Part shown: piece by piece, positions 17,971 through 19,632 of the stretch | Position numbering within the stretch: the first letter of the stretch is position 1 | How the letters are laid out: each line of letters opens with the position of its first letter | DNA from: Thermoplasmata archaeon | GTDB taxonomy: Archaea; Thermoplasmatota; Thermoplasmata; Methanomassiliicoccales; Methanomethylophilaceae | Length of the DNA: 53,126 nucleotides | Direction: 5' to 3' | Assembly: GCA_015063165.1 (NCBI GenBank) | Contig: SUSZ01000002.1 | Span: forward strand, 100,517 to 153,642 | Made by a program: the position numbers and the translations under genes | The notes under the pieces: model-generated | Told to the model about the DNA's origin: nothing | What the model saw: only the letters and a program-made list of their open reading frames with translations | The model's database searches: none

Positions 17971-18368
17971 ATGCTCGAGACAGGCATCAAAGGCTGCAAG
18001 GCCGTCAAGGTGACGCAAGAGAACACCGCAGAAGCCATGGGCAGCGGTACGCTCCCGGTTTTCGCCACCCCTGCGATGATCGCCCTTATCGAGGCTGCGG
18101 CCTCCGAGAGCGTGGCGTCTTCGCTAGCAGATGGCCAGAGCACCGTCGGGACCCGTCTGGACATAGCTCATTCCGCTCCCTCCCCCATAGGGGCGGAGGT
18201 CGTGTGCTAGACGGAGCTCGTCGAGGTCGACAGGAGGAGGCTGGTCTTCAAGGCCTTCGTCAGGGACGGATCGGGGGAGATCGGCTCCGGAACCCACGAG
18301 CGTTTTGTGGTGGACGATGCGAAGTTCATGTCCAAGGCTTCTTCCAGGCTCCGATCGGAACTGCATGA
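17971..18368 (+). CDS. Hotdog-fold thioesterase (FlK-like) with in-frame TAG and 3' frameshift
   Basis: From the ATG at 17971 the frame encodes an FlK/hotdog thioesterase: GSGTLPVFATPAMIALIEAA with the helix motif, TVGTRLDIAHSAPSPIGAEV, then after a TAG at 18208-18210, TELVEVDRRRLVFKAF and GSGTHERFVVDDAKF. Both halves are conserved and in the same frame, so only the one codon is interrupted. It aligns to a variable position (often Glu) in the family. In a pyrrolysine-decoding archaeon TAG could be read as pyrrolysine. Without a frameshift there is no stop for a further 1.2 kb. One extra G at 18357-18358 would end the protein at a TGA (18366-18368). A TATA-like ATATAT lies about 25 bases before the ATG, so the mRNA may be leaderless. 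Active product or pseudogene is undecided. Confidence 0.7.
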
Positions 18369-19632
18369 GGATGACCGGGAGCAGGAGGCATCCGCTCAGG
18401 ATGGTCCTGTCGGTTCCGAAAGCACCCGGGAGGAATCCCACCAGGGTCGAGACGAACAGCATCATCAATCCGAACGGTCCCGTGAGGACGATCACAAGGA
18501 CTATGGTCAGAGCCAAGACCCATCTGCTGAGCCTCTTCTGGTCCACGCGTTCGGCCAGCACGGAGAAGACCTCTCCAGCCTTTATCGTCAGCAGGTATCC
18601 TCCCAGCGAGCCCAGGGCTGCCGCCATCAGAAGGAGCAGGAACGCCTCCGAAGCTACCCCCGAGACGGATTCTCCCGCTATCTCCCCTATGACCAGGACG
18701 GTGCCCGACCTTCCGCTTCCGGAGATAGACAGAGTGACCAGGGAGAGGACTGCCGTCACCGAGCCTATCGAAGCCACGGCGGCTATGAACCTCTCGGGGC
18801 GGTTCTCCGGCATGAAGCAGGCCGATATGGACGCCCCGACCGTGGACGTTATCCCCGGGAACCATCCTGCGACGCACCCCATCACCACCCCTCTGAGGCC
18901 GGAGCAAGCCACTTCCGGGTCCTTGTAGCACCCCTTCTGGGCGGGGACCTTCCCCTCTTCTGCTGCCAGCAGGACGGGAATCCCGAACAGCCCCGACAGC
19001 ATAGGGAACATCAGCGTGCCTTCTCCGGCTATCCCGTCCGAGGGTATAGGAAGGTACATCACCGCCAGCCCTACTGCGCCGGAGAGCAGGAAGCATATCA
19101 CGCCAGCCACCCCGGAGCCCTTGCGGAACTGCGTCATTATCAGAATGACGGCGGCTCCTATTACCACATACGGGGTCATCCTGTCCAAGACGCCCTCCAT
19201 CCCCCAGGTCATGGCGTATTGCATCGGCACGGAGAGGAGGATCGCGGCCGAAGTCCCCACCAGGCTACCGATGGCTGCCGCCCTGACGGCTTCCATCCCT
19301 CTGCCTTCCAGAAGCAGCCGATGCCCTGGGAGGACCGACATGCAGTCCTCGGAGTCCGGGGCCCCTATGAAAACCGACGGCACGAAATCCAGGAACGAAT
19401 GGGTCACCGAAGCGGACATGATGCAGCAGCAGACGGCCACGGCGGCTTCGTAGGGTCCGGCCACTGGCGACAGGGCCGACTCTATGGCGGGATAGGTGGC
19501 CAGAAGCACGGACGCCAGCGTGTTCACGTGGATCCCCGGGACGATCCCGGTGAAGGTTCCCATGCACGCACCTGCCAACGAAAGAATGGCGCATAACAGA
19601 ATCAGCCCCGGGTCCACGGAGCCGTTTCGCAT
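18124..19632 (-). CDS. TctA-family integral membrane permease (C-terminus altered)
   Basis: A polytopic membrane protein of the archaeal TctA/DUF112 family, related to the large permease of tripartite tricarboxylate transporters. Motifs are GTFTGIVPGIHVNTLA near residue 24, the repeated GWFPGITSTVGAS loop, and about ten hydrophobic segments. The family domain ends near LLLPVILMQF (about 18365). The last 80 residues of the open frame are antisense to the thioesterase and finish at a TAG, the only TAG that closes a named gene here. With one extra base at 18357-18358 the protein would end ...IGAWKKPWT at a TGA (18326-18328). No small TctB or binding protein gene is nearby. The transported substrate is unknown. 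Confidence 0.8.
   Translation of the reverse strand: MRNGSVDPGLILLCAILSLAGACMGTFTGIVPGIHVNTLASVLLATYPAIESALSPVAGPYEAAVAVCCCIMSASVTHSFLDFVPSVFIGAPDSEDCMSVLPGHRLLLEGRGMEAVRAAAIGSLVGTSAAILLSVPMQYAMTWGMEGVLDRMTPYVVIGAAVILIMTQFRKGSGVAGVICFLLSGAVGLAVMYLPIPSDGIAGEGTLMFPMLSGLFGIPVLLAAEEGKVPAQKGCYKDPEVACSGLRGVVMGCVAGWFPGITSTVGASISACFMPENRPERFIAAVASIGSVTAVLSLVTLSISGSGRSGTVLVIGEIAGESVSGVASEAFLLLLMAAALGSLGGYLLTIKAGEVFSVLAERVDQKRLSRWVLALTIVLVIVLTGPFGLMMLFVSTLVGFLPGAFGTDRTILSGCLLLPVILMQFRSEPGRSLGHELRIVHHKTLVGSGADLPRSVPDEGLEDQPPPVDLDELRLAHDLRPYGGGSGMSYVQTGPDGALAIC

What the first reader, a model, noticed from the sequence alone, without database searches (positions are those of the whole stretch)
18208..18210. 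In-frame TAG inside a conserved thioesterase: candidate pyrrolysine codon
Both sides of the TAG belong to one FlK/hotdog thioesterase in the same frame, with no loss or gain of bases at the site. The TAG falls at a variable position where relatives often have Glu. Stop codons I read in this window are almost all TGA, some TAA, with no clean gene ending in TAG. Methanomassiliicoccales are known to decode TAG as pyrrolysine, mostly in methylamine methyltransferases; a thioesterase carrying it would be a new type of target. A simple nonsense mutation is the main alternative.
Basis: partly seen in the sequence, partly recalled or inferred. Interest (0 to 1): 0.85.

Follow-up and report, generated by a model that had tools for sequence, protein, structure and literature searches.

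The report
Thioesterase gene with pyrrolysine-type TAG codon
A gut methanogen carries an in-frame TAG "stop" codon in a working-looking thioesterase gene, and the rest of its genome, including its RNA polymerase, shows that it reads TAG as an amino acid (almost certainly pyrrolysine), so the gene is probably not broken but one of many with this codon.

Summary
TAG 18208-18210 is codon 80 of an FlK-type thioesterase (start 17971), with ungapped homology on both sides and intact catalytic residues. The genome has the whole pyrrolysine cassette (pylT with CTA anticodon, pylS, pylB, pylC, pylD) and TAG-containing mtmB and mttB genes. In about 746 kb sampled, 34 of 572 coding segments end at TAG, and 18 of those continue as coding sequence in the same frame. 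The affected genes include single-copy essential ones: CCA tRNA nucleotidyltransferase and RNA polymerase subunit H. The TAGs in rpoH and in a PHP-domain phosphatase recur in 6 species each despite heavy synonymous divergence, so TAG has long been a sense codon here. The thioesterase TAG itself is private to this genome: 25 of 29 genus relatives have Glu (mostly GAG, one base away), the rest Val or Thr. The part after the TAG shows no decay. Best reading: a recent, near-neutral Glu-to-Pyl change in a lineage that reads TAG routinely. That is a known kind of event (Borrel 2014), not a new class of dedicated Pyl target. The conserved TAGs in rpoH and the PHP enzyme are more surprising. Unexplained: no TAA or TGA ends the thioesterase near its normal end.

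The parts
17971..18207 (+). FlK-type thioesterase, codons 1-79, upstream of the TAG; holds the catalytic Thr33, Glu41, His67 (aligned to FlK Thr42, Glu50, His76)
   Evidence: catalytic role of the FlK residues is from established knowledge
18208..18210 (+). in-frame TAG, codon 80, read as pyrrolysine (inferred); GAG/GAA Glu in 25 of 29 genus relatives
18211..18354 (+). rest of the conserved thioesterase, codons 81-128, still under purifying selection
18355..19596 (+). run-on of the thioesterase frame to the next TAA; not constrained as sense beyond about codon 140; lies antisense to tctA
18124..19632 (-). convergent TctA-family transporter gene; constrained down to about 18,390, then an unconstrained run-on that ends in TAG at 18124-18126

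Best explanation
The organism is a gut-type methanogen of the Methanomethylophilaceae that charges tRNA-Pyl (CUA) with pyrrolysine and reads UAG as a sense codon routinely, not only in methylamine methyltransferases. In this lineage a single G-to-T change turned the Glu80 GAG codon of the FlK-type thioesterase into TAG. The ribosome inserts pyrrolysine there and makes a full thioesterase domain. The site tolerates several residues in relatives (Glu, Val, Thr; Lys and Arg in the wider family), so the change is probably near-neutral rather than a catalytic use of pyrrolysine. Shown: gene, frame, pyl cassette, in-frame TAGs genome-wide, TAGs conserved between species in other genes, lack of decay. 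Inferred: that the residue is pyrrolysine, that read-through here is efficient, and that the change is neutral.
For: Cassette pylT-pylS-pylB-pylC-pylD with above-cutoff family scores. MtmB x2 and MttB x2 carry in-frame TAG. 18 of 34 TAG-ended coding segments in 746 kb continue in frame, including the CCA-adding enzyme (407.6 bits vs cutoff 281.3), RNA polymerase subunit H (Pfam), methanogenesis marker 8 and a PHP phosphatase. RpoH and CCA are single-copy in this genome. The rpoH TAG is identical in 6 species and absent from the other 21 genus members found; pairwise synonymous difference 0.25-0.72. One TAG in the PHP gene in 6 species where others have Ala GCC/GCA (position checked in five). 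Thioesterase: downstream of the TAG the G000-private changes are 4 synonymous and 1 conservative nonsynonymous (R118K); differences to G069 fall mostly at codon position 3. The CCA-adding enzyme shows the same kind of change, GAG in its nearest sister to TAG here.
Against: The TAG is not conserved in any relative, so for this one gene a very recent nonsense mutation or an assembly error cannot be excluded. No reads, peptides or second genome of the species were available. About 15 coding segments still seem to end at TAG, so termination at TAG may compete. With TAG as sense the frame runs to 541 codons, far beyond the domain. The only full-length release factor found (aRF1) shows no change fixed across the clade.
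Confidence: 0.8

Rival explanations
1. Recent nonsense mutation: the TAG stops translation at residue 79 and the thioesterase is a young pseudogene.
For: TAG is private to this genome and one base from the common GAG; the frame also lacks a TAA/TGA at its normal end; about 15 other segments may end at TAG.
Against: The organism must translate TAG in rpoH and cca, both single-copy; no other disabling change; downstream part conserved. The missing end stop is shared by sisters with GAG, so it is not decay of this copy.
Confidence: 0.1
2. Sequencing or assembly error in a metagenome-type assembly.
For: Single genome of 67 contigs; no reads available.
Against: Many in-frame TAGs in the same genome, two of them conserved in separately assembled sister genomes, so TAG here needs no special excuse.
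Confidence: 0.05
3. Pyrrolysine at position 80 has a specific selected function (catalysis or regulation by Pyl supply).
For: Pyrrolysine is catalytic in MtmB/MtbB/MttB (established knowledge).
Against: Private to one species; site accepts Glu, Val, Thr in the genus; catalytic Thr/Glu/His are elsewhere.
Confidence: 0.05

Closest known systems
Putative Pyl-containing proteins of 'Ca. Methanomethylophilus alvus' (Borrel et al. 2014, PMC4153887, Table 7)
   Same: Same order and family; in-frame TAG in 16 non-methyltransferase genes, TAG rare as stop (1.6%), homologues in relatives without TAG; authors propose stable in-frame amber mutations under efficient Pyl insertion
   Different: No thioesterase, RNA polymerase subunit, CCA enzyme or PHP phosphatase named in their Table 7; here some TAGs are conserved across species
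Archaeal code with all TAG as pyrrolysine ('Pyl code', reported 2025; from memory, paper not in the held library)
   Same: TAG used as sense across many genes, rare as stop
   Different: Not shown here that every TAG is sense; about 15 apparent terminal TAGs remain
[quoted passage not shown] 2009, cited in PMC4153887; details from memory)
   Same: Non-methyltransferase gene acquiring TAG in a Pyl-decoding archaeon, thought neutral
   Different: Other gene and order; experimental work exists there, none here
Fluoroacetyl-CoA thioesterase FlK (PDB 3kv7, 3p3f)
   Same: Same hotdog family; catalytic Thr, Glu, His aligned and kept
   Different: Substrate here unknown; residue 80 aligns to FlK residue 89 (Thr)

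Membership tests
Pyl-decoded in-frame TAG gene | Genome encodes tRNA-Pyl, PylS and PylBCD | tested here: met
Pyl-decoded in-frame TAG gene | One protein family spans both sides of the TAG in one frame | tested here: met
   Pfam FlK 14-116 across residue 80
Pyl-decoded in-frame TAG gene | Sequence after the TAG under purifying selection | tested here: met
Dedicated Pyl enzyme (as MtmB/MtbB/MttB) | TAG conserved at this site in relatives | tested here: not met
   0 of 29 genus relatives
Pyl-decoded in-frame TAG gene | Peptide with pyrrolysine at the site | not testable with these tools
   no proteomics
Pyl code (all TAG sense) | TAG absent as terminator | tested here: inconclusive
   about 15 of about 554 segments (under 3%) still seem to end at TAG, some of them likely spurious ORFs
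Pyl code (all TAG sense) | TAG in essential, single-copy genes | tested here: met
   rpoH, cca
FlK thioesterase | Family profile score and catalytic Thr/Glu/His | tested here: met
   121.8 bits vs cutoff 27; alignment

The most novel reading that the evidence does not exclude
A clade of at least 6-7 gut methanogen species has made UAG a permanent sense codon, so that even RNA polymerase subunit H and a PHP phosphatase need pyrrolysine. The TAGs there are kept by selection, either for pyrrolysine chemistry (next to the conserved EPV-x-PGTN motif) or as a check that couples transcription to pyrrolysine supply. The thioesterase TAG is a young by-product of this code.
Probability: 0.35. Interest if true: 0.8.

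Novelty: new member of a known kind. Interest (0 to 1): 0.52.

Why it matters
It shows that an apparent broken gene in this genome is most likely whole, and that gene callers using the standard code will truncate many real proteins here, essential ones included. TAGs conserved in rpoH and a PHP phosphatase make it directly testable whether pyrrolysine outside methyltransferases is ever selected for rather than merely tolerated.

Tried and rejected
Conserved TAG in other thioesterases: none; the TAG flagged in G099 lies after its TGA stop. A recoding hairpin after the TAG: fold of 123 nt gives z = 0.08, no signal. TAG as neutral only because tctA is the real gene there: rejected, since differences up to codon 118 fall mostly at thioesterase codon position 3 and shift to position 1 (tctA position 3) only beyond about codon 140. 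Release-factor change that would explain TAG reassignment: no clade-wide difference. Closer next stop after apparent terminal TAGs than after TGA/TAA: not significant (p = 0.14). One family scan failed on wrong coordinates and two scripts failed on a search pattern; all were redone.

Full report
The finding. TAG at 18208-18210 is codon 80 of a reading frame that starts with ATG at 17971. Read through, the protein matches Pfam FlK at E = 1.6e-35 over residues 14-116 and FlK crystal structures without gaps over residues 29-124. Thr33, Glu41 and His67 align with FlK Thr42, Glu50 and His76, which I know as its catalytic residues. The gene is single-copy in its genome.

Relatives. The gene was found in 71 of 102 genomes of the family. 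In the 30 best loci, all of the same genus and including the window's own, the codon is GAG 21 times, GAA 4, GTC 3, ACG 1, and TAG only here. By a rough pattern count in wider relatives, Glu dominates with a few Lys, Val, Thr and Arg. So the TAG is private and one base from GAG. The TAG listed in G099 lies after that gene's TGA.

Is the gene decayed? No. Comparing this genome with G069, taking G068 as outgroup, codons 81-128 carry on this lineage 4 synonymous changes and one conservative nonsynonymous change (R118K); the sister G069 has 4 and 5. dN/dS to G069 is 0.085/0.438 after the TAG and 0.170/1.096 before it. The numbers are small, so a very recent loss of function would not show.

The genome reads TAG. 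It has tRNA-Pyl with a CTA anticodon next to pylS and PylB, PylC, PylD and PylS above their curated cutoffs. Both MtmB and both MttB copies carry in-frame TAG. I took 746 kb of the genome, one third of it, and scored coding potential around each stop: 572 coding segments end in TGA 479, TAA 59, TAG 34, and 18 of the 34 TAGs are followed by coding sequence in the same frame. The genes include CCA tRNA nucleotidyltransferase, RNA polymerase subunit H, a PHP-domain phosphatase, a nitroreductase-like protein, a GTPase-associated protein, a transposase and methanogenesis marker 8. Marker 8 has a second copy without TAG; RpoH and CCA do not. A cell is not expected to live on truncated versions of these two, so TAG must be translated. 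As a contrast, 160 kb of G053, a member of the genus outside this clade, gave 3 TAG in 122 segments, 1 of them with coding continuation.

Conserved TAGs. In rpoH the same TAG sits in a clade-specific insertion in six species (G000, G069, G061, G070, G067, G068) and in none of the other family members found. Pairwise synonymous difference there is 0.25-0.72 and only 13 of 63 codons are identical in all six, the TAG among them. The PHP gene has one TAG in six species (G000, G069, G067, G061, G060, G068). In the five whose position I read out it falls in EPV-TAG-PGTN, where the four outgroups checked have Ala; G069 was counted but its position was not read out. These two sites date TAG decoding to the ancestor of the clade. 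The CCA TAG is private and replaces GAG or GAA of its clade sisters, as in the thioesterase.

The overlap. The minus-strand gene 18124-19632 is a TctA-family transporter, convergent with the thioesterase, and the codons of the two frames are in register, so the TAG reads as Leu CTA on the other strand, where GAG relatives would read Leu CTC. Differences between species fall mainly at thioesterase position 3 up to codon 118 and at position 1 (tctA position 3) beyond about codon 140, so the thioesterase is the selected frame at the TAG. Beyond the domain neither gene has its usual stop in this genome: the thioesterase frame runs to a TAA at codon 542 and tctA to a TAG at 18124. G069, G068 and G060 also lack the usual TGA near codon 129, so this is a clade feature, not decay of this copy. 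Where translation ends I cannot say. In G069 a TAG falls at codon 137, close to the end of the constrained part, which hints that TAG may still end some genes.

Verdict. It is not a new class of dedicated Pyl enzyme: TAG-bearing genes of many functions are already reported in this order (PMC4153887, read), and a code in which archaea read all TAG as pyrrolysine was, as I recall, published in 2025 (not in the held library, so not checked; searches). The novelty lies in the other genes, rpoH and the PHP phosphatase, where the TAG is conserved between species; I found no report of either in the held library, but the searches were few.

Noticed in passing
L066:17806-18108 (G000:C30), and L160-L164: RNA polymerase subunit H has an in-frame TAG in a clade-specific insertion, conserved in six species with diverged flanks.
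   Followed up: yes
L059:12830-13597 minus (G000:C17), L249-L253: PHP-domain phosphatase gene has one TAG in six species; in the five read out it replaces a conserved Ala in EPV-x-PGTN.
   Followed up: yes
L056:18718-19998 minus (G000:C54): Single-copy CCA tRNA nucleotidyltransferase with a TAG private to this genome, GAG or GAA in the clade sisters.
   Followed up: yes
window 18124-19596: Convergent thioesterase and tctA genes both lack their usual stops here and run on antisense through each other in codon register; sister species lack the thioesterase stop too.
   Followed up: partly
L225 (G067), L237 (G061): Release factor aRF1 has NIRS instead of NIKS in two species of the TAG-reading clade.
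   Followed up: no
L058:4981-7977 minus (G000:C17): 998-residue protein frame without known family and with two in-frame TAGs.
   Followed up: no
L045 (G000:C3:12443-13909): MttB-family gene with two TAGs rather than one in the matched region.
   Followed up: no
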